Source of the DNA: a virus
Virus record (IMG/VR): IMGVR_UViG_3300031603_000002
Span: 1 to 64,000 of that record
Reading direction: 5' to 3' (one strand)
DNA length: 64,000 bases
A program made the position numbers and the translations under genes. Of this stretch, positions 8,051 to 53,985 are shown in pieces (position 1 is the stretch's first letter; every line of letters starts with the position of its first letter). The notes below the pieces were generated by a model, which searched no databases, was not told where the DNA came from, and saw only the letters and a list, made by a program, of their open reading frames with translations.

Positions 8051-8455
8051 ATGAGTCAACACTACGCACCGCCTGGCCACGGAATGGTCAGCGAATATCA
8101 GGCATCCGGCGTGCCGTTTGTCAGTTCATCAGCATCTATGGTAAACACAACAGTCGAAAAGTTCACGTTTCCATACGTGTCAAGGCATATAACCATTTTC
8201 AATTCTGGTTCGACGCCAGTTCGAGTCGGTTTTACTGAAAACGGTGTAAACGCCAATCCGGAAAACTCTAACTATTTTTTGGTCTTGGGAATGAGCAACA
8301 CCCCTAGGTTCGAATTAAAATGCGACGAAATCTTCGTAAGAAAGGACGCCGGAACTGATCCGAACATTGTGTCGGTCATCGCCGGTATGACAAACGTGCC
8401 CAGGAAGAATTTCTTCGTAATGTCTGGTTCGAACGGTGTTGTAGGAGTAGGATAA
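8051..8455 (+). CDS. Putative virion protein between gp21 and gp22
   Basis: A 134-residue protein beginning directly after the gp21 stop, with GGAG upstream. It is predicted beta-rich (F-T-F-P-Y-V-S-R-H-I-T-I-F-N, then P-V-R-V-G-F-T, F-E-L-K-C-D-E-I-F-V), Gly/Ser/Asn rich and almost free of Lys, as in small decoration or fibre-like capsid proteins. No known domain is recognised. The stop overlaps the next ATG by one base. A head-decoration or beta-sandwich head protein is a guess from composition and position. Confidence 0.65.
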   Translation: MSQHYAPPGHGMVSEYQASGVPFVSSSASMVNTTVEKFTFPYVSRHITIFNSGSTPVRVGFTENGVNANPENSNYFLVLGMSNTPRFELKCDEIFVRKDAGTDPNIVSVIAGMTNVPRKNFFVMSGSNGVVGVG

Positions 8456-9006
8456 TGGCGAAAATGACAAAGGCATCATTAAAAGGTCTCATCAAAGAAT
8501 GTCTCGTTGAGCTTCTAAGCGAAGGACTTGGTGTTCCCCCCATGAGTTTAACAGAGGGGCACCAACGGCGTGCACCAGCCCAAGCGAGACAACGCAAACC
8601 ACAACGTCAACAGAAAAAGGCATCAATTTTTGATCAAATGGATGCGTCGTTTCAGCAGCCTGCCGATACACCCAATCCCGCATCAAATTTGGCATCAATG
8701 GCAACTGATGATGTAATGCTTCAAGGCATCTTGAGTGAGACAGCAAGCACGACGTACATCGATCGAATGAAACATGAAACAAGCGTACCCTCAGTTCCAT
8801 ACATGTCAGCGCCGTCGCTCCCCGGCGCACGAGACGAATATGGAATGGGCCAACAAACAATATCAGAGGCAGCGCATACAAGGCAGCCTCAAGCACCAAC
8901 ACCACATCATGAGGCTGCGGGTCTAGACATTAATGCATTGTTTGGCGATGCTGCTGCAAATTGGGGAGAAGTTTTAGAGCGTTCAACGACCAAAAAACTT
9001 CCATAA
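8455..9006 (+). CDS. Pro/Gln-rich protein with gp21-type N-terminal leader, putative head-core protein
   Basis: A 183-residue, low-complexity, Pro/Gln/Ala-rich protein. Its first 15 residues form a basic amphipathic segment ending L-I-K-E, followed by Cys. This resembles the MKIT leaders found elsewhere in the window and fits the (I/L)-x-E consensus of gp21. A second candidate site, L-S-E, follows closely. The rest looks disordered, with several hydrophobic patches and further candidate sites. It lies in the head operon between gp21 and the core/scaffold genes, consistent with a prohead core or internal protein processed during maturation. Function beyond that is unknown. Confidence 0.65.
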   Translation: MAKMTKASLKGLIKECLVELLSEGLGVPPMSLTEGHQRRAPAQARQRKPQRQQKKASIFDQMDASFQQPADTPNPASNLASMATDDVMLQGILSETASTTYIDRMKHETSVPSVPYMSAPSLPGARDEYGMGQQTISEAAHTRQPQAPTPHHEAAGLDINALFGDAAANWGEVLERSTTKKLP

Positions 9007-9008
9007 GC

Positions 9009-9016
9009 ATATTTAG
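9009..9016 (+). promoter_or_regulatory. Putative late promoter motif ATATTTAG
   Basis: ATATTTAG lies 30 bases upstream of the small core gene at 9047, in sense orientation, in the intergenic gap. It is one of about fifteen copies of ATAYTTA(G/T) in front of virion-type genes. Confidence 0.5.
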
Positions 9017-9046
9017 ACAAGAGCCCACAAGGCGAAGGAGAATTTT

Positions 9047-9325
9047 ATGGCAAAGAAAGTACGACGAATCACCCCTGGCTTCCTGAAGAAGATTATCATT
9101 CAAGAGGCTAGGAAACTAAAACTAGAAACGATTGAGCAAGGTAAGAAGGCAGCTGAGGACGTCAACGCTGACGAAGTTGATGCTGATGCGCTCGCCGGTA
9201 CGCTTGAGCAGGATCTTGATTTTATCAAGGCTCTGAAGATTAAGGAAGCGAAGATGGTTCGCGGTCTCAAGAGGTTGCGTGAGCAGAAATCAAAGTTGCG
9301 TCGCCGAGTCGCTCGCCGAATCTAA
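9047..9325 (+). CDS. Small basic prohead-core-like protein
   Basis: A 92-residue, strongly basic, helical protein with a good AAGGAG ribosome site. The N-terminal 20 residues (K-K-V-R-R-I-T-P-G-F-L-K-K-I-I-I-Q-E) end in I-Q-E followed by Ala, a gp21-type site. The C-terminus is a coiled-coil-like stretch with Arg/Lys clusters (L-R-R-R-V-A-R-R-I). T4 has two small core proteins, gp67 and gp68, in this neighbourhood; size and position fit that role, though I cannot show homology. It is preceded by its own late motif. Confidence 0.7.
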   Translation: MAKKVRRITPGFLKKIIIQEARKLKLETIEQGKKAAEDVNADEVDADALAGTLEQDLDFIKALKIKEAKMVRGLKRLREQKSKLRRRVARRI

Positions 9326-9354
9326 AACTTTGTTCATGCTAGAAGGAGAACATC

Positions 9355-9930: not shown

Positions 9931-9948
9931 GTCACCGGAATAGTTGAT

Positions 9949-10458: not shown

Positions 10459-10475
10459 TTTTCCAAAGTTACCGA

Positions 10476-10483
10476 ATACTTAG
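10476..10483 (+). promoter_or_regulatory. Putative late promoter motif ATACTTAG
   Basis: ATACTTAG lies 16 bases upstream of the scaffold start in a 41-base gap, in sense orientation. It is a member of the recurrent octamer set. Confidence 0.5.
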
Positions 10484-10499
10484 TTGCAAGAGGTTATGG

Positions 10500-12251
10500 A
10501 TGTCAACAGTATATGACGAAGCATTGCTAGACGCGCAAAAAATTCGAGATGCAGCCGAACAAGCTGCACAGGCTCGAATTATGGAAACGATAACTCCACA
10601 AATCAGGGAAATGATCAACAACAGAATTTTGTTCGAACAAGACGAAACTGATGAAGACGAAACTGATGAAGATGATGAAGGCACGATGGGTGACATGGAA
10701 GACGATTACGATCTTGAATCCATGCTCAACGGAATGCCTGATGTCGGAGTTGATTTCGAAGATGCCGCATCGCAAGAGGCAGTTACACAGGCAGGTTCTG
10801 TTTCAGTTCATGCTGCAGGCGACGTGAACATTAACGTATCGGAGTCACACGACGAAATGATGCTAGGTGAAGCCGGCGCAAACGTTCTTGCGTCCCTTAT
10901 TAATAAGGACTTCGTCGCACCGCGTCGTCTCGAAGAGAAAATCGACGACCTATCGAAGCGAGTCAAGAAACTCGGCGATGTGGTGAGCGTACTTCGAGAG
11001 AGCAAATTATCAAACGTTAAAAGAAAACGATTAGAACTAGGTTTTATGTCATGTGTTAAGGACGCGGTGTCCTTGCAGAATGAAGTAAAATCGAGTGGAA
11101 CAGGTCATCGGCGCCTTCATGCAAAGCTGAATTCTACCATTAAGGAGATGAGAGAAATGTCAAGTAAATACAAAAAGAACATTTTCGACTTTCTTTTCGA
11201 GGGCGATGACGCTGAATCGAAGAAGAAAGATGCGAACGACGCCGTGAACGAGCAGGAAGAAACTGGAGAGGACGTTGAAGTTCTTGATGGTGGTCTTGAG
11301 GATTCAGGCGAAGAATTGGATTTGGATGTCGAAGAAGAAGGCGTTCCAACAGGCGACGTTGATGTCGACGCTGCAACCTCCGCACTCCAGAGCCTCGGTT
11401 CTGCTCTTGGTCTCGACCTTGAGATTGTCGGTGAGGAAGGCGGCGGCGAAGAAGACTTCGGTGGCGAAATGGATTATGAGGAAGGTGGCGAAGAAGGATT
11501 CGACGATGTTGAAGACCTGGACGTTGACCTGGAAGAATCAGCATGGTCCGGCCTGAAAGAGTCTGATGACTTGGACGAAGTCTACGAAATCGATGAGTCG
11601 GTTCTTCGTAATGAGCTTTCACGCATGCGTCGTGGTAAGCGAGCACCAGTTCGTGAGTCCGCTGCACGTAAGAAATTGCGTCGAATGGTTCGCGAAGCTG
11701 CTGAAGATGAAGCTGACCAGTTTGGTGACGGTAAGATTCTCGGTGACGTGATTGAAATCGACGAAGACACACTGATCAACGTCCTAGCGGATGAGCTCGG
11801 TACAGTCGCTGAGGGTCGCCGACCAGCGCGTCGTCAACGACGCGCACCTCGAGGTCGCCGACCAGCACCTCGTGCTCACGCACGTGCTATGAAAGAAGCA
11901 AAGACATACAAAACTGCGGCAACCAAGTTGAAGAAACAACTGGTTGAAATGAACATGTTCAACGCGAAGCTCTTGTTTGCTAACAAGTTGCTCCAGAACA
12001 AGGGACTAACCGTAAAACAACAGCGAGCAATTGTTGAGGCGATCGATAATGCCAAGACGCTCCGTGAGGCAAAACTGCTTTACAAATCACTCTCCGAGTC
12101 ACTCACTCGTAGGGGCCAAGGTGGCGAAACACTGAGTGAAGGAAAAAGGACTCTCGGGTCGTCTTCCAGATCAACCCGGTCAGGGCAACCTGCCAAAAGT
12201 GGTGTTGATGCAGGTCGATGGGCAGTCCTAGCAGGTCTTCCCGGCAAATAA
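10500..12251 (+). CDS. 22: Prohead scaffold/core protein (gp22-like), unusually long, with a nested in-frame start
   Basis: A 583-residue, highly charged, helical protein in the position of T4 gp22, the main core scaffold that gp21 degrades before packaging. T4 gp22 is about half this size. It has an acidic low-complexity stretch near residues 45-75 (repeated D-E-T-D-E), a coiled-coil middle, a second long acidic region (about 230-360) and a very basic Arg/Ala/Pro segment (about 437-465). Many potential cleavage sites are present, such as M-V-R-E/A and T-V-A-E/G. Codon 220 is an ATG with its own ribosome site, see the separate entry. The ATG at 10500 is preceded by AGAGG. Assignment rests on position and composition. 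Confidence 0.8.
   Translation: MSTVYDEALLDAQKIRDAAEQAAQARIMETITPQIREMINNRILFEQDETDEDETDEDDEGTMGDMEDDYDLESMLNGMPDVGVDFEDAASQEAVTQAGSVSVHAAGDVNINVSESHDEMMLGEAGANVLASLINKDFVAPRRLEEKIDDLSKRVKKLGDVVSVLRESKLSNVKRKRLELGFMSCVKDAVSLQNEVKSSGTGHRRLHAKLNSTIKEMREMSSKYKKNIFDFLFEGDDAESKKKDANDAVNEQEETGEDVEVLDGGLEDSGEELDLDVEEEGVPTGDVDVDAATSALQSLGSALGLDLEIVGEEGGGEEDFGGEMDYEEGGEEGFDDVEDLDVDLEESAWSGLKESDDLDEVYEIDESVLRNELSRMRRGKRAPVRESAARKKLRRMVREAAEDEADQFGDGKILGDVIEIDEDTLINVLADELGTVAEGRRPARRQRRAPRGRRPAPRAHARAMKEAKTYKTAATKLKKQLVEMNMFNAKLLFANKLLQNKGLTVKQQRAIVEAIDNAKTLREAKLLYKSLSESLTRRGQGGETLSEGKRTLGSSSRSTRSGQPAKSGVDAGRWAVLAGLPGK
11142..11159 (+). promoter_or_regulatory. Internal ribosome site and in-frame start within the scaffold gene
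   Basis: AAGGAG (11142-11147) is followed nine bases later by an in-frame ATG (11157). It would give a 364-residue C-terminal form starting M-S-S-K-Y-K-K-N-I-F-D-F-L-F-E-G. That N-terminus ends in L-F-E/G at residue 15, the same shape as the gp21-type leader of the ParB-like protein at 18813. The nested form may therefore be the real gp22 homologue. Confidence 0.5.
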
Positions 12252-12302: not shown

Positions 12303-14189
12303 ATGTCTACATTTAATCTAGAAATGCTAACCGAGGGGATTCAAAAACGTCACGTCGGAGCACAAAACAAACTACTCATCGAGAAGTGGAACCGTACTGG
12401 TCTTCTTCGCGGGCTTGGCGGCACGAAACGAGAGAACATGGCACGCTTGCTCGAAAGTCAGGCTGGCCAGGTAATCAGGGAGGCATCGTCAATTTCGACT
12501 GGCGGCGCAAACGGAACTTCGTCAGGTGACCTTCGTGGTTTTACAAACATCGCATTCCCATTGGTTCGCCGAGTCTTCGGTGGATTGATTGCGAACGACC
12601 TTGTTTCGATTCAGCCAATGAGCCTTCCTTCCGGACTGCTCTTCTACATGGACTACACTTACGGTGGAGACATGGCGGGTAACGTCGGAGCTGCGGTGCC
12701 TTACGCATCAGGTTCGTCAATCTACAACAGCCCAACCGGCAAAGGCATTCAGTCTGGTTCGCAGGGTGTCGGTGGTCAGTACGACCTAGCCGGTTCAGGT
12801 TTCTCACGTGTGTACGGTGTAACAGCCGCAACAACGTTGCTAACCTCGGGCGCTTTCGGCAGCGGAAACACATTTGTTGTTTCCAAGGCCCTGGCTGCAA
12901 CCGGTTCCGACGGTAAACTGCTACAGTACGATCCGCAGATCACAAACGCAATTGAGAACAACGCCGCTGGACCAGGCGAGAAGGTTGGTAACGGTGTATA
13001 CTCGGCGGTCGTGGTTTCGTTGGCTTCAGGCGGCACACTCTTTGGTGATGCTGACCTTACGTTGTCTAAGGACTTCTCGATGGGGCCAACCAACCCATAC
13101 AAGATTGTTGGTAACGACACCAATGGTAACGCAATCCAGGGTGGTAGCACAGCTAACATTCGTCGATTGAACCAGATGGGTGTGTGGGATGGTAACACAT
13201 TCACGCCTAACGGGCTCGTAAGAGCTGGTGAAGCTGGCGCTGCACTCTTGATGATCGTTTCTGGTGCAAACGTGGCTACTGTCGCGGCGGCATCTGTTAT
13301 ACTTGCTAAGCCATTGGCTGCAGCACTTGATTCGGCAGCGAACACAGGCGACACCTTGGTGATTCCTTCGTTCGAGTCTGATTTCGGAGTCAACCCTTCA
13401 CCGGCAATCCCTGAAATCGACATCAAGATCGAGTCAATCGCTGTTGTTGCTGAAACTCGTAAGTTGCGTGCACGCTGGTCGCCAGAAATGGCACAGGACC
13501 TGAATGCTTACCACAGCCTTGACGCTGAGGTTGAGTTGACACACATCCTGTCCGAGCAGATCGCAATGGAGCTTGACCGAGAAATCTTGAATGACTTGCT
13601 GACACAGGCTGGAGCCGCGCGCTTCTACTGGTCACGTAGTCCAGGCAAGTTCCTCAACAAGCAGACTGGTCAAGAGGTCAACCGTACAAACTCACTGACT
13701 CCTGGTCCGGCATTCACCGGTACAGTACGAGAGTGGTACGAGACTCTTATCGAGACCATCATCGATGTTGCTAACGAGATCCATCGTAAGACACTTCGTG
13801 GTTCGGCTAACTTCATCGTTGTCGGCCCGGATGTTGCAACAATCTTCGAGTCTTCAATCCTGTACAAGCCAAGCTTCTCGCTTGACGCTGACGGACAGGT
13901 TGGCCCGATGGTTATCGGTGCTGAGAAGGTTGGTACCCTGTCGAATCGCTTCTCGGTTTACAAGGACCCTTACTTCCCACGCAACCAGATTCTGGTTGGA
14001 TACAAGGGCGGAAGCTACCTGGAGACAGGATACGTCTACGCTCCTTACGTCCCGTTGATCGTGACTCCTACCATCTTCGCACCCGAAGACTTCACACCTC
14101 GAAAGGGCGTGATGACTCGGTACGGTAAGAAAATGGTGAGAAATGACTTTTATGGCACGGTAACTTGCCTTGACATGAATGTGATATAG
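12303..14189 (+). CDS. 23: Major capsid protein gp23
   Basis: A 628-residue HK97-fold capsomer protein. Characteristic gp23 blocks include F-P-L-V-R-R-V-F-G-G-L (about 84-94), the strand L-L-F-Y-M-D-Y-T-Y-G-G, then R-K-L-R-A-R-W-S-P-E-M-A-Q-D-L, L-S-E-Q-I-A-M-E-L-D-R-E-I-L and the terminal F-Y-G-T-V-T-C-L-D. It is about 100 residues longer than T4 gp23, mostly through an Ala/Gly/Thr-rich insertion between about residues 165 and 365. The N-terminal propeptide probably ends at Glu60 (G-Q-V-I-R-E/A), matching the gp21 consensus. It has a strong GGAG ribosome site, a late motif upstream and a terminator downstream, as expected for the most abundant late product. Confidence 0.97.
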   Translation: MSTFNLEMLTEGIQKRHVGAQNKLLIEKWNRTGLLRGLGGTKRENMARLLESQAGQVIREASSISTGGANGTSSGDLRGFTNIAFPLVRRVFGGLIANDLVSIQPMSLPSGLLFYMDYTYGGDMAGNVGAAVPYASGSSIYNSPTGKGIQSGSQGVGGQYDLAGSGFSRVYGVTAATTLLTSGAFGSGNTFVVSKALAATGSDGKLLQYDPQITNAIENNAAGPGEKVGNGVYSAVVVSLASGGTLFGDADLTLSKDFSMGPTNPYKIVGNDTNGNAIQGGSTANIRRLNQMGVWDGNTFTPNGLVRAGEAGAALLMIVSGANVATVAAASVILAKPLAAALDSAANTGDTLVIPSFESDFGVNPSPAIPEIDIKIESIAVVAETRKLRARWSPEMAQDLNAYHSLDAEVELTHILSEQIAMELDREILNDLLTQAGAARFYWSRSPGKFLNKQTGQEVNRTNSLTPGPAFTGTVREWYETLIETIIDVANEIHRKTLRGSANFIVVGPDVATIFESSILYKPSFSLDADGQVGPMVIGAEKVGTLSNRFSVYKDPYFPRNQILVGYKGGSYLETGYVYAPYVPLIVTPTIFAPEDFTPRKGVMTRYGKKMVRNDFYGTVTCLDMNVI

Positions 14190-15144: not shown

Positions 15145-15762
15145 ATGAAAAACAGCCAAACATTGACACGATTCATCAACGAAACCCTTGAATCAGACGA
15201 TTATCGTGGAAGTCACCAGGCAGCAGACAGGGAAGGTGGCTGTCCGATGACAGACGTCACTAAAAATGACATTTATCCAGATGATTTCTACACATCAGTC
15301 GGCTCAACATATTACGGTGATGGCCGACGCACAGACTATCAAGTCTGGGCAATGATAAAACGTGTGCACAACAAAAAATGGGCGCAAGTCAAAGTTTATC
15401 GAGCTGTCCCGCATAAGCCGACAAATGATGAAAGAATTTCACAAATAGAAAAAGAGCAAGCAGAAATGCTAAAAACAGGCAAGCTTCCAATGCTTGCTGT
15501 AACTCCACTAAGTCAAAGCCAGTATTACAACAAAAACTACAATGAGTTAGAAACCCTGTTGAAGCAAGATGCTGATGAACCACCCCGCCCGAAACTAAAA
15601 ATAAATCCAGGCGATTGGGTCACGATTTTTAGGCCGTACGCATCAGAACACGGTCGTGCTTCGCTAAACAACGAATACAAAATATTGAGCAAGACAGTTT
15701 TTGCCCGGGACCTGTATACAGAAGGCAACAGCATGTACGAATGGGGCTGGGACCCGGATTGA
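15145..15762 (+). CDS. Putative ADP-ribosyltransferase-like protein with gp21-type leader
   Basis: A 205-residue protein. The N-terminus M-K-N-S-Q-T-L-T-R-F-I-N-E/T ends in I-N-E, a gp21 consensus site. The rest has the order expected of small phage ART-like domains: V-Y-R-A-V-P (Arg86), I-N-P-G-D-W-V-T with Y-A-S-E-H-G, and near the C-terminus N-S-M-Y-E-W-G (Glu199). I recognise this as a widespread phage module likely to have the R-S/T-E ART fold, but the catalytic role is inferred. T4 packages the ART Alt in its head and trims it with gp21, so leader plus ART fits an injected host-modifying enzyme. The gene is bracketed by 28-bp direct repeats, and the second begins at the last base of its stop codon. 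Confidence 0.6.
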   Translation: MKNSQTLTRFINETLESDDYRGSHQAADREGGCPMTDVTKNDIYPDDFYTSVGSTYYGDGRRTDYQVWAMIKRVHNKKWAQVKVYRAVPHKPTNDERISQIEKEQAEMLKTGKLPMLAVTPLSQSQYYNKNYNELETLLKQDADEPPRPKLKINPGDWVTIFRPYASEHGRASLNNEYKILSKTVFARDLYTEGNSMYEWGWDPD

Positions 15763-15789
15763 TTCTGCGTCATCCGGTTCTAACAGATA
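15762..15789 (+). repeat. 28-bp direct repeat, copy 2
   Basis: Identical to 15088-15115 but non-coding here. It starts on the last base of the ART-like stop and runs into the late motif before the next gene. It looks like a recombination scar or duplication end point. Confidence 0.9.
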
Positions 15790-15814: not shown

Positions 15815-16057
15815 ATGAAAATCACAAAAACACAACTCAGAAAATTGATCCGCGAACAAACTGAAGATAAGACCGATCGGGCAGAACAACTATTCAATCA
15901 ACTGGGCAAAGATGCACAAAAAGCGATAGAAAGTTTGCTGGGAAAGAAAGAGTTTTGCCAGGCAGTTGCGAAAGAGATTGAGCTCCACGGCGACCAAGCC
16001 GCGAAGCTGTCTGTAATTAGGGCAATTGCTTTGACACTAATAGGAAGGGCGCAATGA
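15815..16057 (+). CDS. Small MKIT-leader protein, putative head-internal protein
   Basis: An 80-residue protein starting M-K-I-T-K-T-Q-L-R-K-L-I-R-E/Q, with the predicted gp21 cleavage after Glu14. The remaining 66 residues are helical and charged, without a recognisable domain. GAGG precedes the ATG. The stop overlaps the next MKIT gene (ATGA), so the two are coupled. Role as injected or head-core protein is inferred from the leader. Confidence 0.7.
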   Translation: MKITKTQLRKLIREQTEDKTDRAEQLFNQLGKDAQKAIESLLGKKEFCQAVAKEIELHGDQAAKLSVIRAIALTLIGRAQ

Positions 16058-16176
16058 AAATCACAGAATCACAACTTAGAAATATGGTCAAAGAACAGTC
16101 ACGACGCCCTCGCGTTGAAGTGAAACCCCAGCTTAACGACTACGATGAGCCTCTTCGTGGGTTACAAGCCGCATAA
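16054..16176 (+). CDS. Tiny MKIT-leader protein (40 residues)
   Basis: A 40-codon ORF starting inside the previous stop, with GGAAGG as ribosome site. It begins M-K-I-T-E-S-Q-L-R-N-M-V-K-E/Q, the same leader as its neighbour, with Glu at residue 14. After predicted cleavage only 26 residues, basic then acidic, would remain. It could be a genuine peptide, or the front half of a longer protein continuing in the +1 frame at 16145 if a frameshift or sequence error lies near 16140-16170. The leader makes translation of its start very likely. Confidence 0.6.
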   Translation: MKITESQLRNMVKEQSRRPRVEVKPQLNDYDEPLRGLQAA

Positions 16177-18330: not shown

Positions 18331-18813
18331 ATGAAAATCACAAAAAGAAGCCTAGCGAGGCTTGTTACAGAAGCCAAACGCTTAAATGAAACATCTGATG
18401 GTTCAGAATACCGATATTGGATGTCATCAAAGGTTTGGGGGCTCGATACACTAAAAGAACTTCCAAGTCGACAGGCATCACGAGCCCGCGAAACATTTCC
18501 GGAATATTCCGCGTGGGATCTTTATGATAATGAGAATATACCCGACGATCTTGTAACAAATTTCACAGGCCGGCAACCTTTACCGAGTGTATTCATTATT
18601 TCCGGGAGGAACATTGATATTCTTGTTGACACATCAGGATTTGATTACGCTCGATATTCAGCGAAGATTGGTGATGGCTCCCTGGCAGATGACGATGTGA
18701 CTGATTCAGATGAATATATAACAGGTCGTGAAGATGCCCAGTATGGCGAGCCCCGCGATACATATGCAGGCCCGAGATACCAGTTAGCGTACGACACGTA
18801 CGAGGGCAAATAA
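18331..18813 (+). CDS. MKIT-leader protein, unknown payload
   Basis: A 160-residue protein; the ATG at 18331 was chosen because it restores the leader M-K-I-T-K-R-S-L-A-R-L-V-T-E/A, with Glu at residue 14 (V-T-E, gp21-like). The payload is mixed alpha/beta and acidic (S-V-F-I-I-S-G-R-N-I-D-I-L-V-D as a beta core), Asp/Tyr rich toward the C-terminus. No known domain is recognised. TAATG overlap couples it to the ParB-like gene downstream, which also bears a leader. Confidence 0.65.
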   Translation: MKITKRSLARLVTEAKRLNETSDGSEYRYWMSSKVWGLDTLKELPSRQASRARETFPEYSAWDLYDNENIPDDLVTNFTGRQPLPSVFIISGRNIDILVDTSGFDYARYSAKIGDGSLADDDVTDSDEYITGREDAQYGEPRDTYAGPRYQLAYDTYEGK

Positions 18814-19784
18814 TGAAACGACGTTATCCGAAACTTGTCGATATTCTTTTTGAGGATGTGACTGATGATATTGCCAAGGCGGCCAAAGGTGGCCCTGGTG
18901 CTGTTCGTTCATTCGTAGACAATTATCCGGATCCTGATGAGCTGAAGGCAGCCCTTGCTGGCACCCATGATAATGTCAAAACTGACGACACGACGAACGT
19001 ATCAGAACCTACAATGAGAAAAATCAGTGATTTCAAGCCAACCCAGAAAGAAATCGATATGATGAAGTCTGCGGCGTTCCCATTGGGAAGTGCAAAGGCT
19101 CTTGCGAAAGCAATTACATCGAACACGACAGATGCACCCGGCTCAATTACAGTCTCAGGCGATGATGTGATCGATGGGCATCACAGATGGTCAGGTGTTT
19201 GGGCAATTAGCGGACAAAGTGGTATGATCGGCGCTGAGGATTTGGATCTCCCCGGAGATACAACTCAGAAACTCGCCGCCGCGCAACTTGCCATCGCAGC
19301 GCATAAGGACGTAAACCAGGACATGCCAACAGCATCTGGCAAGATCGAAAATAACATTCTAGGCAAATCATCAGGCGAAATTGAAAAGATGATGGTGGCA
19401 AACATAGGCCGCCAGGTAGATCGAAGGGCCCCTGGGCCAATGTTAAATGACGAAATGGTTGCAAACTCATCGAAGGATAAGGTTATTGCCAAGTGGGCTG
19501 GATTCAAGCTCGGTGCTGATGCCAATGAAATAAAGGCAAAAATTATCAAGAAGATTTCGGCGAACCTGGCAACTGTGCCAGGTAACCCAAAGGCACCAGC
19601 CCGAGAGGATATGCCTCAACTAGACCACAAATCGATTGGTGGGAAGGCTGCAAAAGCTGCAATTTATGACAAATTGCAAAACGCTGAAATCAATATCAAA
19701 AACCCGCTGAGCCCGCAGAAAGAATCCGCAGAGCAGGATGGAAACCTATTGACAGAGCGCTGGTGCCGATTGGCTAGCTGCTAA
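18813..19784 (+). CDS. ParB/Srx-like domain protein with gp21-type leader
   Basis: A 323-residue protein. The start M-K-R-R-Y-P-K-L-V-D-I-L-F-E/D has L-F-E with Glu at residue 14. Residues 100-130 carry the ParB/sulfiredoxin-fold signature V-I-D-G-H-H-R-W (DGHHRW at 121-126), used for nucleotide or phosphoryl chemistry in ParB CTPases and related nucleases. The C-terminal half is helical, Ala/Lys rich. If packaged in the head it could act on incoming DNA or host targets, but that is inference. Its stop shares the tetranucleotide CTAA with the stop of the convergent minus-strand gene. Confidence 0.65.
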   Translation: MKRRYPKLVDILFEDVTDDIAKAAKGGPGAVRSFVDNYPDPDELKAALAGTHDNVKTDDTTNVSEPTMRKISDFKPTQKEIDMMKSAAFPLGSAKALAKAITSNTTDAPGSITVSGDDVIDGHHRWSGVWAISGQSGMIGAEDLDLPGDTTQKLAAAQLAIAAHKDVNQDMPTASGKIENNILGKSSGEIEKMMVANIGRQVDRRAPGPMLNDEMVANSSKDKVIAKWAGFKLGADANEIKAKIIKKISANLATVPGNPKAPAREDMPQLDHKSIGGKAAKAAIYDKLQNAEINIKNPLSPQKESAEQDGNLLTERWCRLASC

Positions 19785-20204: not shown

Positions 20205-20711
20205 ATGATAAAACCATATCCAGCTCCAGAACCCACAGTCATGAGGAAAATTCTTGATGGGAACCGACCGGCTGATTATGTCACATATTGGCATCGAATG
20301 CCGGGAAGGTATGTTTTGAAAGAGACAGGCGAGGATTGCGGAGATGAGGAAACACGCCCGCTATTTTATGGCACGGTGACAGAGTGGTATTCGCTTTTAG
20401 GCGAGGCAGTCTACGATGCTTGGTCGAAAATAACAGATAAGGGCCTTACAGGGATGACGTCAGGAATCATCGTGTCCAAGGATATTCAAACAGTCCTTGA
20501 GACAACGCATTGGTACCGCGGAATATATCATTACTGTAGTTGTTGCACAGCCAAAACTGAGTGGCCAGTGATTGGAGTGATTGACGGGATCCCCGTCTAC
20601 GCCAGCGATGAAGTAGGAAAAAAGGTCGTTGTGTTCATGACGGGTTGCGAGAAGTGTGATCTTGAAGCCATCGCCGAGGTAAGAATTAAGGGAATGAGTA
20701 GGATCAGCTAA
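20205..20711 (+). CDS. gp23-related protein resembling the capsid C-terminal part
   Basis: A 168-residue protein, AGAGGT upstream. It aligns by eye with the C-terminal third of gp23: P-G-R-Y-V-L-K-E-T-G against P-G-K-F-L-N-K-Q-T-G; Y-G-T-V-T-E-W-Y-S-L-L against T-G-T-V-R-E-W-Y-E-T-L; then I-I-V-S-K-D-I-Q-T-V-L-E against I-V-V-G-P-D-V-A-T-I-F-E; and I-P-V-Y-A-S then V-V-V-F-M-T-G against F-S-V-Y-K-D then Q-I-L-V-G-Y-K-G. It has a Cys cluster (C-S-C-C and C-E-K-C) absent in gp23. It lacks the N-terminal arm and insertion. Function is unknown. Confidence 0.6.
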   Translation: MIKPYPAPEPTVMRKILDGNRPADYVTYWHRMPGRYVLKETGEDCGDEETRPLFYGTVTEWYSLLGEAVYDAWSKITDKGLTGMTSGIIVSKDIQTVLETTHWYRGIYHYCSCCTAKTEWPVIGVIDGIPVYASDEVGKKVVVFMTGCEKCDLEAIAEVRIKGMSRIS

Positions 20712-21427
20712 GAGTCGGCGGCAATCGAGCGACCAAATAGCTGACGCAACGTTTTCCACGCAGGCAATTCCATTTGGCTGATGAACTGGTGATTAGTTTT
20801 TATCGCAGTGTCAACGATTGAAAAACGATGTTTTCTGTCACGTAATGATAACATGTTGATCCCTAGCAAAGAGTGTTCAGGGTTTTCGTGAGCTGATTTT
20901 GCAGCGCCCGACATACGGCGCAGCTCCACATCAAGCTTCATTCCAGGAAATTTGTTTAACCTTCTTCTGAAATCATCTTGTTCCCTTCTTTCCCATGCAG
21001 AACCGTCGCTGTACCAGGCGTCTCTATCGAGTTCATCAACCGACATTGATTTGCCCAGAAATTTGAGTTCACCATTCTGTTTGATTTTCTCCCACACATC
21101 GTTTTTGATAAGAACCTCAGTCCCCCAATCATATCGATGTAATCCACCGCTGGCTGAAATTGCCCACTCAGGTACCTGGTATGCATAGACGTTCCCACGA
21201 ATGCCATGATTGGCACGAATACCACGTGGGTTCGTTGACATAAAGATTCCGCCGTCTTCGTTCTTCGGCAGCCAATCCCGATCCCACCCTTTCCCACGCC
21301 TCTCAGGACGAGGCTGCACAGGTCGCTTGTCAATACGATAAAGCGTTCGACTGTTTTTTCTCGCGCCCCGTATCTCTTTGAGGATCGCCCTAACGAATGT
21401 TTCAAGTTGAAGATTATCGTGCGTCAT
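20708..21427 (-). CDS. Putative second ART-like protein with gp21-type leader (minus strand)
   Basis: A 239-residue basic protein. The N-terminus M-T-H-D-N-L-Q-L-E-T-F-V-R-A-I-L-K-E/I ends in L-K-E at residue 18. The next 90 residues show an order compatible with R-S-E ADP-ribosyltransferases: T-L-Y-R-I (Arg31), I-F-M-S-T-N-P (64-66), then Y-A-Y-Q-V-P and G-T-E-V-L-I (Glu104). The C-terminal part is helical and charged. The ART assignment is a hypothesis; the leader is clearer. A late motif on the minus strand lies only four bases before the ATG, suggesting a leaderless mRNA or a later start. It converges with the gp23-like gene, sharing CTAA. Confidence 0.5.
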   Translation of the reverse strand: MTHDNLQLETFVRAILKEIRGARKNSRTLYRIDKRPVQPRPERRGKGWDRDWLPKNEDGGIFMSTNPRGIRANHGIRGNVYAYQVPEWAISASGGLHRYDWGTEVLIKNDVWEKIKQNGELKFLGKSMSVDELDRDAWYSDGSAWERREQDDFRRRLNKFPGMKLDVELRRMSGAAKSAHENPEHSLLGINMLSLRDRKHRFSIVDTAIKTNHQFISQMELPAWKTLRQLFGRSIAADS

Positions 21428-21431: not shown

Positions 21432-21439
21432 ATAAATAT
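21432..21439 (-). promoter_or_regulatory. Putative late promoter motif (minus strand)
   Basis: It reads ATATTTAT on the minus strand, sense to the ART-like gene, ending four bases before its ATG. The site is nearly palindromic, so direction is not certain. Confidence 0.4.
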
Positions 21440-32069: not shown

Positions 32070-32330
32070 GTGAAAATCACACAGAAACAATTGCGTAGGT
32101 TGATCAAGGAACAAACCGACGACTGGTACGAGCCAGGCGACGGGAAATGGGATGACTACGATGATGATGAAGAATTAGCAAGTGTGATTGACGAAGATCC
32201 TACTGACATGGCCCAAATCCTGTTACGAAACAATCGCAACTGGAAACAGGGTCGAAACGCGGACGAAGTATATATTATGACAGGCGAAGCCGAGGGCATC
32301 ACGGTCAAGGTTATGAGGAGAGGACGATGA
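32070..32330 (+). CDS. MKIT-leader protein, array member 1
   Basis: An 86-residue acidic protein with a GTG start that places M-K-I-T-Q-K-Q-L-R-R-L-I-K-E/Q at its N-terminus (Glu14, I-K-E). The remainder is very acidic in its first third (D-D-Y-D-D-D-E-E) and ends in a small beta segment (E-G-I-T-V-K-V-M-R-R-G-R). It lies nine bases behind sheath copy B and overlaps the next array member through ATGA. Function unknown; head targeting is inferred from the leader. Confidence 0.7.
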   Translation: MKITQKQLRRLIKEQTDDWYEPGDGKWDDYDDDEELASVIDEDPTDMAQILLRNNRNWKQGRNADEVYIMTGEAEGITVKVMRRGR

Positions 32331-32542
32331 AAATCACAAAACGGCAATTACAAAAACTTATTCAAGAACAACACGATCCAGAGCGTCTCGGCATGGAACC
32401 GGGGGAGGAGCTTGAGGAGCAGTTTGCAAATGCGATTGCAGAGGCTGTATCCGAAGGAATGGACCGCTACGATATAAAGCTGGCCTTCGATAATGCATGG
32501 GATTATGTTGAAGCAACACTCACGCACACCCCGGGATACTAA
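32327..32542 (+). CDS. MKIT-leader protein, array member 2
   Basis: A 71-residue acidic protein starting M-K-I-T-K-R-Q-L-Q-K-L-I-Q-E/Q (Glu14, I-Q-E), with AGGAGAGG just upstream. The payload is a single predicted helical domain (E-E-Q-F-A-N-A-I-A-E-A-V-S-E-G-M, F-D-N-A-W-D-Y-V-E-A-T-L). No known family. It is coupled to members 1 and 3 (3-base gap). Confidence 0.7.
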   Translation: MKITKRQLQKLIQEQHDPERLGMEPGEELEEQFANAIAEAVSEGMDRYDIKLAFDNAWDYVEATLTHTPGY

Positions 32543-32545: not shown

Positions 32546-32809
32546 ATGAAAATCACGCAGAAACAATTGCGTCGGCTTATCAAAGAAGAAAGAACACTTC
32601 TTTCCGAAATGAACCCTAACGGAACAATTTCTGATGATGAGGACCAGGCACGAGATGATCTTATGGCAGCTGTCGAAATACAGGTCGATGAGCTTGTACA
32701 ATATATTGAAGAGCAAGCGTGGAAAATCGGCGGAGACTTTAGAGGTCCAGGAATCAGATATCAGGCATTGAAGATTCTCAATAAAAGAGTTCAAAGGAGA
32801 TCACTATGA
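32546..32809 (+). CDS. MKIT-leader protein, array member 3
   Basis: An 87-residue protein with leader M-K-I-T-Q-K-Q-L-R-R-L-I-K-E/E, identical to member 1 through residue 14 and so probably a recent duplication or domain shuffle. The payload is unrelated to members 1 and 2: an acidic helix (A-V-E-I-Q-V-D-E-L-V-Q-Y-I-E-E-Q-A-W) and a basic end (N-K-R-V-Q-R-R-S-L). It overlaps member 4 by four bases. Confidence 0.7.
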   Translation: MKITQKQLRRLIKEERTLLSEMNPNGTISDDEDQARDDLMAAVEIQVDELVQYIEEQAWKIGGDFRGPGIRYQALKILNKRVQRRSL

Positions 32810-33303
32810 AAATCACACGCAGACAAATCAGAAATTTGATTAGCGAGCAGTCAGACAACGGTTTTTCAGTTGGCGACACAGTCGTTGCAACAATTTTCGG
32901 CAAGGCCAAAAAGGGAAAAATCACAGAAATGCATGGCATGGGTGACATGGCAAGCGTAGATTTTGGAAACGGAGACGTTTATGGAATTATGCTGAACAGG
33001 CTAAAACCTTCGAAACGGGTTAACGAGCAGAACTACGGCCGCGGTCAGAACTATGGGTACTCACCCACTGGTCGTCCACCTCGCAAACGCGGATTTAATC
33101 AGGCTAGCTCGGCATCAATGTCAGCGGCAAAATCATTGCGTGCAAAATTCAAACGACGATACCCTGACGCACAGATAAAAATTGATGGCAGAAACGGGTG
33201 GATCATCGTAAATGGAAAGAATGTCGTAAACATGGGTGCCAACGGCGCCAGCAATTATGACGAAATGGCAGAAAAAATGGAAGCTGCGTTATCAGGATTC
33301 TAG
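32806..33303 (+). CDS. MKIT-leader protein, array member 4, with SH3/KOW-like domain
   Basis: A 165-residue basic protein. The leader is M-K-I-T-R-R-Q-I-R-N-L-I-S-E/Q (Glu14, I-S-E). Residues about 18-65 (F-S-V-G-D-T-V-V-A, K-K-G-K-I-T-E-M, A-S-V-D-F-G-N-G-D-V-Y-G) look like a small SH3/Tudor/KOW beta barrel, often used for binding nucleic acid or polymerase. A Gly/Arg/Asn-rich linker follows, then a basic helix (A-A-K-S-L-R-A-K-F-K-R-R-Y) and a strand pair (I-K-I-D-G-R-N-G-W-I-I-V-N-G). Binding host RNA polymerase or ribosomes would be an attractive but untested idea. Confidence 0.7.
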   Translation: MKITRRQIRNLISEQSDNGFSVGDTVVATIFGKAKKGKITEMHGMGDMASVDFGNGDVYGIMLNRLKPSKRVNEQNYGRGQNYGYSPTGRPPRKRGFNQASSASMSAAKSLRAKFKRRYPDAQIKIDGRNGWIIVNGKNVVNMGANGASNYDEMAEKMEAALSGF

Positions 33304-34847: not shown

Positions 34848-35636
34848 ATGAACATCTCATCAATAAGAGCATTTGTCCGCACCACTCTCCTACAAGAAAA
34901 AGCTTCAACGGCAGAAATGGCCTCGAATGACAATTTAGCGCTGGCAACATATAAAGACCGTGACGAGTATGGCGACATTTCATATGTCCTTTTCGATAGA
35001 AATTTGTTCATTCATTTTTTCATACAAGAAGTCAAGGCAATTGCGAAAGACGATGGCATATCAATCTCTGACATAATAAGAGACGAGTTTGATGATGTCT
35101 TATCTGACTTATCTGCTAGAATGGCGGAACACGCAGTTTCGTTCGTCCTAGGCACAATTGACATAGAGAAGGCATGGGACGGGCCGAGTAACGACGCCAG
35201 TATGGTACATGCTCCGGCGGCCTCAAAAGGTTATGGCCCGTTGATGTACGATATAGCCATGGCAGACGCCGGCGAGCTCATGCCTGATCGTCAACCCGAT
35301 GTGTCGAAATCTGCACAGAGCGTTTGGAAATATTACAAAAACAAAAGAAGCGACGTCGTATCAACACCCCTAGACAACATTCGTAATCCGCAGACACCAC
35401 AAAAAACAGACGATGCCTCTGTTCATAAAAAAGGCAAAGAGAATTTTGGTAACTTCTTGGATTCATCGTACCATCTTAAGGGTAAGGGTCCTGACGTTGC
35501 TGGAATGACTGCATCATTTAAACAACTCGAGGCGTATGTTGGCAAGAAGCTAAACATAACTCCGTACACCCTCCATGACATTTTGTGGACTTCTGCCGAG
35601 GCTTTTTACGACATCAGGCACGACACAGAAAACTAA
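34848..35636 (+). CDS. Leader-bearing accessory protein, possible acetyltransferase-like payload
   Basis: A 262-residue protein from the ATG at 34848; an in-frame GTG 15 bases upstream is an alternative. The N-terminus M-N-I-S-S-I-R-A-F-V-R-T-T-L-L-Q-E/K ends in L-Q-E, gp21-like. The centre has A-S-K-G-Y-G-P-L-M-Y-D-I-A-M, then L-M-P-D-R, V-S-K-S-A and V-W-K-Y-Y, a conserved phage pattern resembling the acetyl-CoA-binding helix region of GNAT enzymes (G-x-G-P-L-x-Y). I rate GNAT as plausible only. The C-terminal 70 residues are helical. Confidence 0.55.
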   Translation: MNISSIRAFVRTTLLQEKASTAEMASNDNLALATYKDRDEYGDISYVLFDRNLFIHFFIQEVKAIAKDDGISISDIIRDEFDDVLSDLSARMAEHAVSFVLGTIDIEKAWDGPSNDASMVHAPAASKGYGPLMYDIAMADAGELMPDRQPDVSKSAQSVWKYYKNKRSDVVSTPLDNIRNPQTPQKTDDASVHKKGKENFGNFLDSSYHLKGKGPDVAGMTASFKQLEAYVGKKLNITPYTLHDILWTSAEAFYDIRHDTEN

Positions 35637-48732: not shown

Positions 48733-49230
48733 ATGAACGACAAACTTGATGCGATGCTTTTAGAAGCGGTTAAAGATTTTCTACATGAGGAAAAAGCCAG
48801 TAAGAGTAAGGTGGACTATCGGGGAGCGTATGGCACCGGCGGTGCCTTTAGCAAAGAGATCGCGTTTACTAAAGGCCGGGCTGAAACTGATCCAAAAGGC
48901 CTATTACGCGATCTCGGTATAACTCAAAAAGCAGAAGGAAAGACTGACGCAATCAAAGCGGCATCTATCTTGCAACAAGCAATTCGGGCAAACGAGACCA
49001 TGGCTGAGGCCTTCGGTGACGTCAAAAGAACGATGACGAAGACTTCAAAAGGTAAAGACATTGAAGGTTTTAGCATTTCGTTTGATGACGATTTGAAACA
49101 ACGTGATGCAACGAAATATCTCGTCATCACCTTACGTGCTGCGGAGAATGGTGGCGTGCTGCACCTCGACAAGGGCATCAGTTTTGCTAGTGCTAAATTG
49201 GTTTCAAAACCAACAATTTACTCAAAGTAA
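48733..49230 (+). CDS. Leader-bearing protein, unknown payload
   Basis: A 165-residue basic protein from the ATG at 48733 (AAAGGTG upstream). The N-terminus M-N-D-K-L-D-A-M-L-L-E-A-V-K-D-F-L-H-E/E ends in L-H-E at residue 19, preceded by an amphipathic helix, so it belongs to the gp21-type leader group although it lacks MKIT. The payload is Lys/Ala rich with Gly-rich start (Y-R-G-A-Y-G-T-G-G-A-F-S-K-E), helices, and a beta end (K-Y-L-V-I-T-L-R-A-A-E-N-G-G-V-L-H). Function unknown. Confidence 0.6.
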   Translation: MNDKLDAMLLEAVKDFLHEEKASKSKVDYRGAYGTGGAFSKEIAFTKGRAETDPKGLLRDLGITQKAEGKTDAIKAASILQQAIRANETMAEAFGDVKRTMTKTSKGKDIEGFSISFDDDLKQRDATKYLVITLRAAENGGVLHLDKGISFASAKLVSKPTIYSK

Positions 49231-51033: not shown

Positions 51034-51053
51034 ATGACTGTGTAAGGTCAGCG

Positions 51054-51097
51054 ACAAAGCGGGGACGGCATTTATTGTCATCCCCGCTTTGTTCTTT
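51054..51097 (+). terminator. Terminator after gp32
   Basis: A perfect 12-pair inverted repeat ACAAAGCGGGGA (51054-51065) and TCCCCGCTTTGT (51081-51092), with a 15-base loop, then TCTTT. Strong stem but short T-tract, so some read-through into uvsX is possible. Confidence 0.8.
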
Positions 51098-51136
51098 GGA
51101 GGTAAAAATACTAATATTACATACATGGAGAAAATT

Positions 51137-52390: not shown

Positions 52391-52391
52391 G

Positions 52392-53357
52392 ATGAATCAG
52401 CCTGCCCACCAAGATCGTCCAGTTTTGATTATCGACTTCATGAACATGTTCATCAGGCATTTCAAAGCCAACCCGTCAATGGCATCCACCGGAGAACCAG
52501 TCGGCGGAGTTATGGGCTTTCTTGGTGGTTTGGGACGGTTGTGCGAAACATACAATCCAAAAAAGGTAATCGTTGTTTTCGAGTCAGGCGGAAGCCAAAG
52601 AAAACGAGCAATTTCAGCGTCGTATAAGAACGGTCGAAAGGCACCGAAAATGAATCGGTACTACGGCGATGACATTCCAACGACACCTGAGAATTTTGCC
52701 ATGCAAGTTCTGTTTATTACCCGTGCATTGAAATGTTTGCCGGTGACACAGGTGTACGTCTCAGGCTGCGAAGCAGACGACGTTATAGGTTACCTAGGCC
52801 GGTACCATTTCAAGACGTCCAGGGTCATTCTGGTGTCTTCAGACAAGGATTTCTATCAGCTCATCGATGAACGAGTGCAACAATGGTCGCCCGGACAGAA
52901 AAAGTTGATTACAGAACAGGCTGTTATAGACAAGTTTGGTGTTTCTCCACAGAATTTTTGTTCAGCGAGGGTGTTCATCGGGGATCCGAGTGACAACGTT
53001 TCTGGTGTGAAAGGTGTAGGCTTCAAGAATATGGCAAAGTGGTTCCCGCAACTGGGTGGATCCGAGTTCATTAGTCATAACGATGTTGTTGATAGCGCCA
53101 TCGAATTGGCGAAAACAAAGGCAGCCAAAACGATTCATCGGATTGCTGAATCTAGAGATTTGGCGCTGAAAAACTGGAGACTGATTTACCTGGATACATC
53201 TCAACTATCAGGAGACCAGATTCAAAAGGTAAATCATCAGATTGAAAATGAGGGTGAGGGAAACAAGATGCAGTTGATGCGTCAGTTAATCCAATCGGGC
53301 ATGCAAAAATTTGATATTGATCGACACTTCGCCGCGATTATGTCAATTCGACGCTAG
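52392..53357 (+). CDS. rnh: RNase H / 5'-3' flap exonuclease (T4 rnh-like)
   Basis: A 321-residue FEN-superfamily nuclease that removes RNA primers and flaps. Metal-binding motifs are in order: L-I-I-D-F-M-N (Asp15), V-V-F-E-S-G-G-S-Q-R-K-R, S-G-C-E-A-D-D-V-I-G, V-S-S-D-K-D-F-Y-Q-L and the helix-hairpin region I-G-D-P-S-D-N-V-S-G-V-K-G-V-G. ATG one base after the uvsX stop; the earlier in-frame TTG is less likely. Its stop overlaps the stop of the convergent minus-strand MKIT gene in the palindrome CTAG. Confidence 0.92.
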   Translation: MNQPAHQDRPVLIIDFMNMFIRHFKANPSMASTGEPVGGVMGFLGGLGRLCETYNPKKVIVVFESGGSQRKRAISASYKNGRKAPKMNRYYGDDIPTTPENFAMQVLFITRALKCLPVTQVYVSGCEADDVIGYLGRYHFKTSRVILVSSDKDFYQLIDERVQQWSPGQKKLITEQAVIDKFGVSPQNFCSARVFIGDPSDNVSGVKGVGFKNMAKWFPQLGGSEFISHNDVVDSAIELAKTKAAKTIHRIAESRDLALKNWRLIYLDTSQLSGDQIQKVNHQIENEGEGNKMQLMRQLIQSGMQKFDIDRHFAAIMSIRR

Positions 53358-53686
53358 CCAGAATATTCTGTGCCCCATTCTTCAACAGCAGCCTGGACCC
53401 GCTGAACAGGGACGCCTTCATCTTCGGCGACTTGTTCAATTGCATACTTCTCAGCGTTATAACCAGGTGCACCGTAAGCAATGTATTCACCAACATATTG
53501 AGCGAGGTTAAAGTCAGAAGCCTTAGGTGGTCGACTCTGTTGTGGTCTCCGGCGTGGCGTTGAAGCCCCGGGAACCATACGTTGTTCACCATTGTGATCT
53601 GTGTACCAATCAAGCGTTGAATCTCGAATATCAGCCAGTCCGGCTTCACGAATGAGTTTTGTTAGTCGTTTTTTTGTAATTTTCAT
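53354..53686 (-). CDS. MKIT-leader protein (minus strand), downstream member
   Basis: A 110-residue protein starting M-K-I-T-K-K-R-L-T-K-L-I-R-E/A (Glu14, I-R-E/A, identical to the predicted gp23 site). The payload has a Pro/Arg-rich stretch (T-P-R-R-R-P-Q-Q-S-R-P-P-K) and a helical end (Y-A-I-E-Q-V-A-E-D-E-G-V, V-Q-A-A-V-E-E-W). Its start overlaps the stop of the upstream minus-strand MKIT gene by four bases. The pair lies inside a plus-strand replication block, suggesting a mobile late cassette. Confidence 0.72.
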   Translation of the reverse strand: MKITKKRLTKLIREAGLADIRDSTLDWYTDHNGEQRMVPGASTPRRRPQQSRPPKASDFNLAQYVGEYIAYGAPGYNAEKYAIEQVAEDEGVPVQRVQAAVEEWGTEYSG

Positions 53687-53985
53687 TCTGTCCCGCTTAT
53701 TAGGTCACGCGTGTTGACTGTAAAGAGTCTGTCTCTACGAAGGTCATACACTTCTGTTCGCGATCCATCATCGCTTGTGCGTCCCACTTCAATTTCAGTT
53801 CCTGCGAGCAGCCACGCTGTTCGTCCTGATGAGCGATTTTGCAGTCCGCCCTGGTTGAGCCATAAAACATCACCGGTCAGGACTTCGCGACTACCAGGCC
53901 CTAGACCGTAATCTTCGAGCTCTGATTGGTGCAAATCAGCATATTCTCGAATGAGCCTTGTCAGGCCATTTTTTGTCATTTTCAT
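53683..53985 (-). CDS. MKIT-like-leader protein (minus strand), upstream member
   Basis: A 100-residue protein beginning M-K-M-T-K-N-G-L-T-R-L-I-R-E/Y (Glu14). The payload is predicted beta-rich (T-G-D-V-L-W-L, T-A-W-L-L-A-G-T-E-I-E-V, T-E-V-Y-D-L, R-L-F-T-V), possibly an SH3-like barrel. AAAGGAT upstream and a minus-strand late motif 23 bases before the ATG. Coupled to the next gene by ATGA overlap. Function unknown. Confidence 0.7.
   Translation of the reverse strand: MKMTKNGLTRLIREYADLHQSELEDYGLGPGSREVLTGDVLWLNQGGLQNRSSGRTAWLLAGTEIEVGRTSDDGSRTEVYDLRRDRLFTVNTRDLISGTE

What the first reader, a model, noticed from the sequence alone, without database searches (positions are those of the whole stretch)
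8455..53985. A recurrent MKIT-type N-terminal leader on at least sixteen proteins: a probable head-loading and gp21-processing signal
Genes at 8455, 9047, 15145, 15815, 16054, 18331, 18813, 32070, 32327, 32546, 32806, 34848 and 48733 (plus strand) and those starting at 21427, 53686 and 53985 (minus strand) encode proteins with unrelated bodies but a shared kind of N-terminus. It is a short basic amphipathic helix ending in (I/L/V/F)-x-E, most often M-K-I-T-x-x-Q-L-x-x-L-I-x-E. In eleven of them the Glu is exactly residue 14, including one K-R-R-Y variant and one MKMT variant. Known: T4 gp21 cuts after (I/L)-x-E, and T4 internal proteins and Alt carry short N-terminal capsid-targeting sequences removed this way. 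Seen: this phage encodes gp21, and its gp23 has V-I-R-E/A at the expected maturation site. Inference: the leader targets cargo to the prohead core, is clipped by gp21, and the mature cargo is injected. I know of no description of this motif as a modular cargo tag.
Basis: partly seen in the sequence, partly recalled or inferred. Interest (0 to 1): 0.93.

Follow-up and report, generated by a model that had tools for sequence, protein, structure and literature searches.

The report
Prohead address tag on phage cargo
Uncultured relatives of phage T4 put one short, probably clipped-off address tag on the front of ten to more than forty otherwise unrelated proteins, most likely to load them into the virus head for delivery into the next host cell, so the tag can be used to list candidate injected proteins that nobody has characterised.

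Summary
The leader is real and far beyond chance. Eight canonical copies lie in the window against 0.02 expected. The set separates cleanly from all other starts by score. In three records selected only on residues 1-8, residue 14 is Glu in 58 of 61. Close relatives carry up to 45 leader-scoring starts per contig, on 306 body clusters. It tracks T4-like phages: large dense contigs carry gp21 and gp23 or are fragments cut in the head module, and 84,980 cellular genomes give 15 hits, all on MAG contigs. Its end, [IL]I[KR]E, matches the conserved gp23 maturation site [VL]L[RK]E. Two genes between gp21 and the gp22-like gene carry it in about 70 relatives. Spacing L8, I11, I12, E14 equals Y4, F7, I8, E10 of the T4 capsid-targeting sequence, the positions mapped there to targeting and processing. 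So this is best read as a longer, massively expanded version of the known T4 capsid-targeting propeptide, not a new principle. Targeting, cleavage and injection remain unproven here.

The parts
7427..8050 (+). gp21 prohead protease (Peptidase_S77), the presumed processing enzyme; its own N-terminus MSKSRTLLTEW has an LxE site like T4 gp21 (MNEPQLLIETW)
   Evidence: Pfam PF03420 5.8e-25, PHROG 207 4.7e-51; T4 gp21 read
8455..9006 (+). leader gene next to gp21, conserved prohead-core candidate: MAKMTKASLKGLIKE/CLVELLSEG
   Evidence: homologues beside gp21 in about 70 relatives, nearly all with the leader; PSSM 21.5
9047..9325 (+). leader variant on second conserved gene between gp21 and the gp22-like gene: RRITPGFLKKIIIQE/A
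   Evidence: homologues in about 70 relatives read LTPxLLRKIVLEE; promoter-like ATATTTAG at 9009
10500..12251 (+). gp22-like acidic scaffold by position, with internal ILFE, FLFE and LRRMVRE/A sites
   Evidence: synteny and site list; no family hit in PHROGs
12303..14189 (+). gp23 major capsid protein; maturation site QVIRE/A
   Evidence: Pfam PF07068 1.5e-77; site conserved as [VL]L[RK]E in 56 distinct sequences
15145..15762 (+). degenerate leader candidate MKNSQTLTRFINE; weakest of the sixteen
   Evidence: PSSM below threshold
15815..16057 (+). canonical leader MKITKTQLRKLIRE/Q
   Evidence: PSSM 40.8; promoter-like ATATTTAG at 15787
16054..16176 (+). canonical leader MKITESQLRNMVKE/Q, 40-aa protein
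18331..18813 (+). canonical leader MKITKRSLARLVTE/A
   Evidence: PSSM 18.2
18813..19784 (+). degenerate leader MKRRYPKLVDILFE/D; homologues carry KITTKELKSIILEE and KIDSRDLRKIILEE
20708..21427 (-). degenerate leader MTHDNLQLETFVRAILKE/I; one homologue has MRFTSVQLRKVIRRILTE plus a NUDIX domain
   Evidence: promoter-like motif at 21439
32070..32330 (+). canonical leader VKITQKQLRRLIKE/Q (GTG start), first gene of a four-gene leader cluster inside the tail module
   Evidence: PSSM 39.5
32327..32542 (+). canonical leader MKITKRQLQKLIQE/Q
   Evidence: PSSM 38.0
32546..32809 (+). canonical leader MKITQKQLRRLIKE/ERTLLSE
   Evidence: PSSM 39.5
32806..33303 (+). canonical leader MKITRRQIRNLISE/Q
   Evidence: PSSM 32.5
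34848..35636 (+). degenerate leader MNISSIRAFVRTTLLQE; a homologue has MKITESQLRSLIRETLLTE
48733..49230 (+). degenerate leader MNDKLDAMLLEAVKDFLHE
   Evidence: homologues with MVIESVIRNYVRGLLLE; motif at 48706
53354..53686 (-). canonical leader MKITKKRLTKLIRE/A
   Evidence: PSSM 31.2
53683..53985 (-). canonical leader MKMTKNGLTRLIRE/Y
   Evidence: PSSM 22.6; promoter-like motif at 54015

Best explanation
The leader is a capsid-targeting propeptide of the T4 kind. During late gene expression the basic amphipathic helix (I3, L8, I11, I12 on one face) docks the protein on the prohead core, which is made of the gp22-like scaffold and the 8455 and 9047 proteins; the gp21 protease then cuts after Glu14 (and often again after a second (hydrophobic)-x-Glu near residue 22), which frees the body inside the maturing head; the body is packaged with the DNA and enters the next host at infection. 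Shown by sequence: the motif, its Glu specificity, its match to the gp23 site, its link to gp21 phages and its presence on core genes. Inferred by analogy with T4: docking, cleavage, packaging. Inferred more weakly: injection and the functions of the cargo.
For: (1) gp21, gp20 and gp23 in the window. (2) In 56 distinct gp23 sequences the maturation site is P4 V/L, P3 L/I, P2 R/K (55 of 56), P1 E (56 of 56); in 453 leaders the same places are I/L, I, K/R (79%), E (E was required for that set). (3) Selected only on residues 1-8 in three records read essentially end to end, residue 14 is Glu in 58 of 61 and Asp in none; several exceptions have a (hydrophobic)-x-Glu site a few residues on. (4) If residue 20 is hydrophobic, residue 22 is Glu in 121 of 193, while Lys, Arg, Gln and Asp together make 23; a mere amphipathic helix would not need Glu. 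(5) The two genes between gp21 and the gp22-like gene carry the leader in about 70 relatives. (6) Leader spacing equals T4 IPII and IPIII MKTYQEFIAE, whose residues 4 and 7 were mapped to targeting and 8 and 10 to processing (PMC9026906). (7) The unsupervised N-terminal test finds T4 IPII, IPIII, Alt, gp24 and gp68 as a positive control, and gives 17 to 22% of genes against about 4% of internal windows in the leader-rich records. (8) 145 cluster representatives share only the leader; M1 and E14 are the only invariant columns, although E14 was part of how that set was selected. (9) ATA[TC]TTA[GT] lies upstream of gp22, tail genes and several leader genes: 16 of 25 sites against 0.9 expected.
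Against: No virion proteomics or cleavage data. P1' in leaders is most often Glu (252 of 453), in gp23 mostly Ala (37 of 56). Three gp21-positive relatives of 106-127 kb have one or no canonical leader, though the contigs may be partial. Closest cultured gp21 phages and T4 lack this exact motif. Cargo families are almost all unknown, so delivery cannot be judged from function.
Confidence: 0.82

Rival explanations
1. The tagged proteins are assembly-core parts only: the leader docks them on the scaffold and gp21 clips them, but the bodies help build or size the head and are digested and expelled, not injected.
For: Leader sits on conserved core genes 8455 and 9047; one tagged protein hits a PHROG named head scaffolding protein; T4 gp67 and gp68 are core proteins of this kind (PMC9026906).
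Against: Most tagged bodies are poorly conserved and differ between phages (306 clusters, 238 singletons), unlike assembly factors; some are enzymes: RelA/SpoT-type hydrolase, NUDIX, M23 peptidase, L,D-transpeptidase, RNase_T.
Confidence: 0.1
2. The leader is a docking tag for something other than the head, for example a phage-made compartment, a shared adaptor or the membrane, and the Glu is part of that interface, not a cleavage site.
For: It is a basic amphipathic helix, and leaders within one genome resemble each other more than between genomes (0.589 against 0.489, largest shuffle 0.515), as expected of a tag with a genome-specific partner.
Against: Strict Glu at two spaced sites, identity with the gp23 maturation site, location on genes beside gp21 and gp22, spacing equal to the T4 CTS.
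Confidence: 0.05
3. The leader is a by-product of gene duplication or recombination: a mobile 5' coding cassette copied onto many genes, without function at the protein level.
For: Identical residues share codons more often than codon usage predicts (0.54 against 0.35 in G024), so some copies are related at the DNA level; leader genes sit in tight head-to-tail arrays (median gap 1 base).
Against: Codons still differ at almost half of identical residues; the pattern persists across clades with different flanking residues; exact length to Glu14 is kept; homologues of degenerate cases keep the chemistry while the sequence drifts.
Confidence: 0.03

Closest known systems
T4 capsid-targeting sequence (CTS) of internal proteins IPI, IPII, IPIII and Alt
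   Same: Short N-terminal basic amphipathic propeptide ending in (L/I)-x-E on unrelated proteins of a gp21 phage; hydrophobic spacing identical to IPII and IPIII (Y4, F7, I8, E10 against L8, I11, I12, E14).
   Different: Fourteen residues against ten, different sequence (MKITKRQLRRIIKE against MKTYQEFIAE), often a second site near residue 22, and ten to more than forty carriers per genome against a handful in T4.
T4 prohead core proteins gp67 and gp68
   Same: Small genes beside gp21 and gp22; T4 gp67 also holds LIKE and LIEG sites.
   Different: Homology not shown; the window genes 8455 and 9047 lie after gp21 rather than before it.
Ejection-protein propeptides of giant phages phiKZ and SPN3US
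   Same: N-terminal propeptides cut after Glu by a diverged gp21 relative, thought to target ejection proteins (PMC9026906, PMC5694885).
   Different: Those of SPN3US are mostly over 100 residues, the phiKZ cleavage motif is S/A-x-E, and no common short tag on many genes is described.
P1 DarB N-terminal packaging signal
   Same: First 30 residues direct a protein into the capsid (PMC9024508).
   Different: No consensus shared among Dar proteins.

Membership tests
T4-type capsid-targeting propeptide (CTS) | short (10-19 residue) N-terminal segment shared by proteins with unrelated bodies | tested here: met
   481 bodies fall into 306 clusters; only the N-terminus aligns in 145 representatives
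T4-type capsid-targeting propeptide (CTS) | ends in a gp21 site, (L/I)-x-E | tested here: met
   I12-x-E14 pattern, Glu14 in 58 of 61 unselected cases; equals the gp23 site of the same phages
T4-type capsid-targeting propeptide (CTS) | phage encodes a gp21-type protease | tested here: met
   PF03420 in the window and in ten of the 26 pattern-found contigs, including all over 135 kb; the leader-rich contigs without it that were examined are mostly fragments of T4-like genomes
T4-type capsid-targeting propeptide (CTS) | hydrophobic residues at the targeting positions upstream of the site | tested here: met
   L8 and I11 in register with Y4 and F7 of IPII and IPIII; function not tested
T4-type capsid-targeting propeptide (CTS) | propeptide is removed in the prohead | not testable with these tools
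   needs virion mass spectrometry
T4-type capsid-targeting propeptide (CTS) | sufficient to package a foreign protein; cargo found in the virion | not testable with these tools
   needs fusion and virion experiments
T4-type capsid-targeting propeptide (CTS) | made in time for head assembly (late expression) | tested here: inconclusive
   motif ATA[TC]TTA[GT] shared upstream of gp22, tail and leader genes, 16 of 25 sites against 0.9 expected; that it is a late promoter is inference
ADP-ribosyltransferase (Alt-like) for gene 20708-21427 | ART fold | tested here: inconclusive
   LYR/FMST/TEVLI pattern by eye only; no Pfam hit; low-confidence model with no PDB match at E 0.001

The most novel reading that the evidence does not exclude
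A whole lineage of large uncultured T4-like phages uses one clipped N-terminal address tag as an open loading system: any gene that captures the tag becomes a head-packaged, injected protein, so that ten to more than forty proteins per phage, in some 300 mostly unknown families that include alarmone hydrolase, NUDIX, peptidase and nuclease domains, form a readable arsenal of takeover and counter-defence effectors.
Probability: 0.6. Interest if true: 0.9.

Novelty: new variant of a known kind. Interest (0 to 1): 0.8.

Why it matters
Proteins injected with phage DNA act first in infection and are hard to find because they share no domains. A 14-residue tag readable from sequence alone would turn metagenomic phage genomes into lists of candidate injected effectors, and would give a second, sequence-distinct capsid-loading signal to set beside the T4 one, with its cognate gp21 and scaffold, to learn how targeting and cleavage specificity evolve. 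It also gives a short peptide to test for protein delivery by phages other than T4 and P1.

Tried and rejected
Structure prediction of 20708-21427 to test an ADP-ribosyltransferase reading: mean pLDDT 70, pTM 0.43, no PDB match at E 0.001; the reading is left open. tblastn with a 23-residue consensus leader in 50,697 phage records found only LR756508.1; that record also holds the top-ranked gp23 match, but the query is too short for the search to count as a census. Two control patterns meant to sample random large viral contigs returned too few loci, so there is no matched set of gp21-negative viral contigs; the cellular scan serves as the negative set. Relatives of 20708-21427 were not found by the viral-contig scan; distant ones came from loci already held. 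Considered and rejected: chance, a generic amphipathic helix, occurrence in non-T4 phages (as far as sampled), a cellular motif.
Full report
WHAT IS THERE. The window is part of a 96,595-base viral record. It holds the T4-like head module in order: terminase gp17 (1906-3504), portal gp20 interrupted by an intein (3557-6619), prohead protease gp21 (7427-8050, Pfam S77 5.8e-25), genes 8455 and 9047, a gp22-like acidic protein (10500-12251) and major capsid protein gp23 (12303-14189, Pfam 1.5e-77). The degenerate DNA pattern of the canonical leader is found 8 times against 0.02 expected, and a leader profile separates the canonical starts from every other start codon in the record (18 to 41 bits against -1 for the next). 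The profile was trained on a leader set that includes the window's own, so the shuffle test is the independent one. Glu is residue 14 in ten of the sixteen. Five genes (15145, 18813, 21427, 34848, 48733) are degenerate; homologues of 18813, 34848 and 21427 carry a clear leader elsewhere, for example MKITESQLRSLIRETLLTEAA for 34848 and MRFTSVQLRKVIRRILTE for 21427, and those of 48733 a degenerate one.

HOW WIDESPREAD. With gp21 as bait, 439 relatives were found in viral contigs and 80 kept. The leader pattern occurs 17 to 25 times in each of six large relatives and never in the reversed-pattern control there; counting all starts scoring above 10 bits gives 45 in G024 and 30 in G036. In 84,980 bacterial and archaeal genomes a similar pattern gave only 15 stretches, all on contigs of metagenome-assembled genomes; the densest of them, NHDW01000006 (305,838 bases), carries gp21 itself and so is a misbinned phage. 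Of 26 pattern-found viral contigs, all over 135 kb carry gp21 and gp23. Of those lacking both, the ones I examined are mostly T4-like fragments: G036 starts inside the tail module and keeps the same gene order from there on, and G040 and G045 keep the baseplate-UvsX order. G057, a 58 kb contig rich in leaders, has none of the marker genes and is unassigned.

PROTEASE-SITE CHARACTER. Taking the records of G000, G024 and G036 and requiring only residues 1-8, residue 12 is Ile in 57 of 61, residue 13 is Lys or Arg in 53, and residue 14 is Glu in 58, never Asp. Among the exceptions seen in these records and in the gp21 loci, several have a (hydrophobic)-x-Glu a few residues later, for example MRITESQLRRIIRQERARLIREG. 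A second (hydrophobic)-x-Glu ends at residue 22 in 121 of 453 leaders against a background of roughly 10 per position beyond residue 25, and when residue 20 is hydrophobic residue 22 is Glu in 121 of 193. The gp23 maturation site in 56 distinct sequences reads V/L, L/I, R/K, E with P1' mostly Ala. That the P2 preference for Lys or Arg is shared by gp23 and the leaders is not something a generic helix predicts.

CORE LINK. The genes between gp21 and the gp22-like gene are conserved as two families in about 70 relatives, and nearly all begin with the leader: MAK(L/I/V)(T/S)(K/R)xxLK(G/S)(I/V/L)(V/I)KECLVEILxEG and (R/K)(K/R)(L/I)TPxxL(R/K)(R/K)(I/M)(V/I)xEE. The gp22-like protein itself holds sites such as RILFE, FDFLFE and LRRMVRE/A.

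T4 COMPARISON. Read from the T4 record, IPII and IPIII begin MKTYQEFIAE/A. Aligned on the Glu, Y4, F7, I8 and E10 fall on L8, I11, I12 and E14. Suppressor mutagenesis of the IPIII signal assigned targeting mainly to residues 4 and 7 and processing to 8 and 10 (PMC9026906). Run blind, the same N-terminal test picks out T4 IPII, IPIII, Alt, gp24 and gp68 among 26 genes, and in the cultured Flavobacterium phage immuto finds MKKSQLRQIIKE and a four-fold MENFDLKKFLVE-type N-terminus. In the leader-rich records 17 to 22% of genes have such an N-terminus against about 4% of internal windows.

CARGO. The 481 bodies make 306 clusters, 238 of them single. Of 145 representatives, a handful hit Pfam: L,D-transpeptidase, RelA/SpoT-type HD, LysM, RNase_T and RelB-like antitoxin. 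Other tagged proteins or their homologues carry M23 peptidase, NUDIX, and PolyA polymerase with DUF192 and PAP2 (the true start of the last was not established). In the HD protein the match to solved RelA enzymes begins at residue 22, just after the leader.

EXPRESSION AND EVOLUTION. The element ATA[TC]TTA[GT] occurs 25 times in the record, 16 of them 8-60 bases upstream of a start on the same strand against 0.9 expected; these starts include gp22, tail genes and seven leader-type genes. I infer a late promoter. Leaders within one genome are more alike than between genomes at the variable positions (0.589 against 0.489, largest of 500 shuffles 0.515), and identical residues share codons more than codon usage predicts (0.54 against 0.35); so the tag spreads partly by copying and is then held at protein level.

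LIMITS. No experiment here shows targeting, cleavage or injection. P1' differs between leaders (Glu) and gp23 (Ala). G005, G008 and G012 have gp21 but one or no canonical leader; they may be incomplete or use variants. There is no matched gp21-negative viral control set. No paper in the held library contains this motif, but subscription papers are not held.

VERDICT. The tag principle is known from T4; this sequence, its length, its second site and its scale appear undescribed. I file it as a new variant of the T4 capsid-targeting propeptide with the two wet features (removal in the prohead, presence in the virion) untested.

Noticed in passing
window 3557-6619: The gp20 portal gene is interrupted by an intein with an HNH endonuclease (Intein_splicing 6.4e-15, HNH_3 3.5e-09).
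   Followed up: no
G000 record 67384(+), 85742(+), 76786(-): Further leader genes outside the window: MKITKNQLRRLVRE, MAKISKTELRKLIKE and MTNTLRQLIRETLLAE.
   Followed up: partly
window, 16 sites in the record, for example 9009, 10476, 15787, 22560, 36827, 54015(-): Upstream element ATA[TC]TTA[GT], a candidate late promoter of this phage group; TATAAATA of T4 is not enriched upstream here.
   Followed up: partly
L266:2837-4294: A leader protein that joins a domain related to window 20708-21427 with a NUDIX domain.
   Followed up: partly
Microcystis phage Mel-JY01, 60276, 60923 and 62056: Three paralogues begin MIKLKSLLKEIISDRVWHLTT or alike, a short leader-like N-terminus on a shared body; no Pfam hit for two of them.
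   Followed up: no
window 62065-62688: Reads by eye like a ClpP-type protease (IDSYGGAVYS...MSCGTVLASCG); not searched.
   Followed up: no
GTDB contig NHDW01000006.1 (Methylococcaceae bacterium TMED69): A 305,838-base contig in a bacterial MAG carries gp21 and over 20 leader genes, so it is a misbinned jumbo T4-like phage.
   Followed up: partly
L007, L026 and L020: Some relatives hold two gp23-like genes, perhaps gp23 and a vertex paralogue.
   Followed up: no
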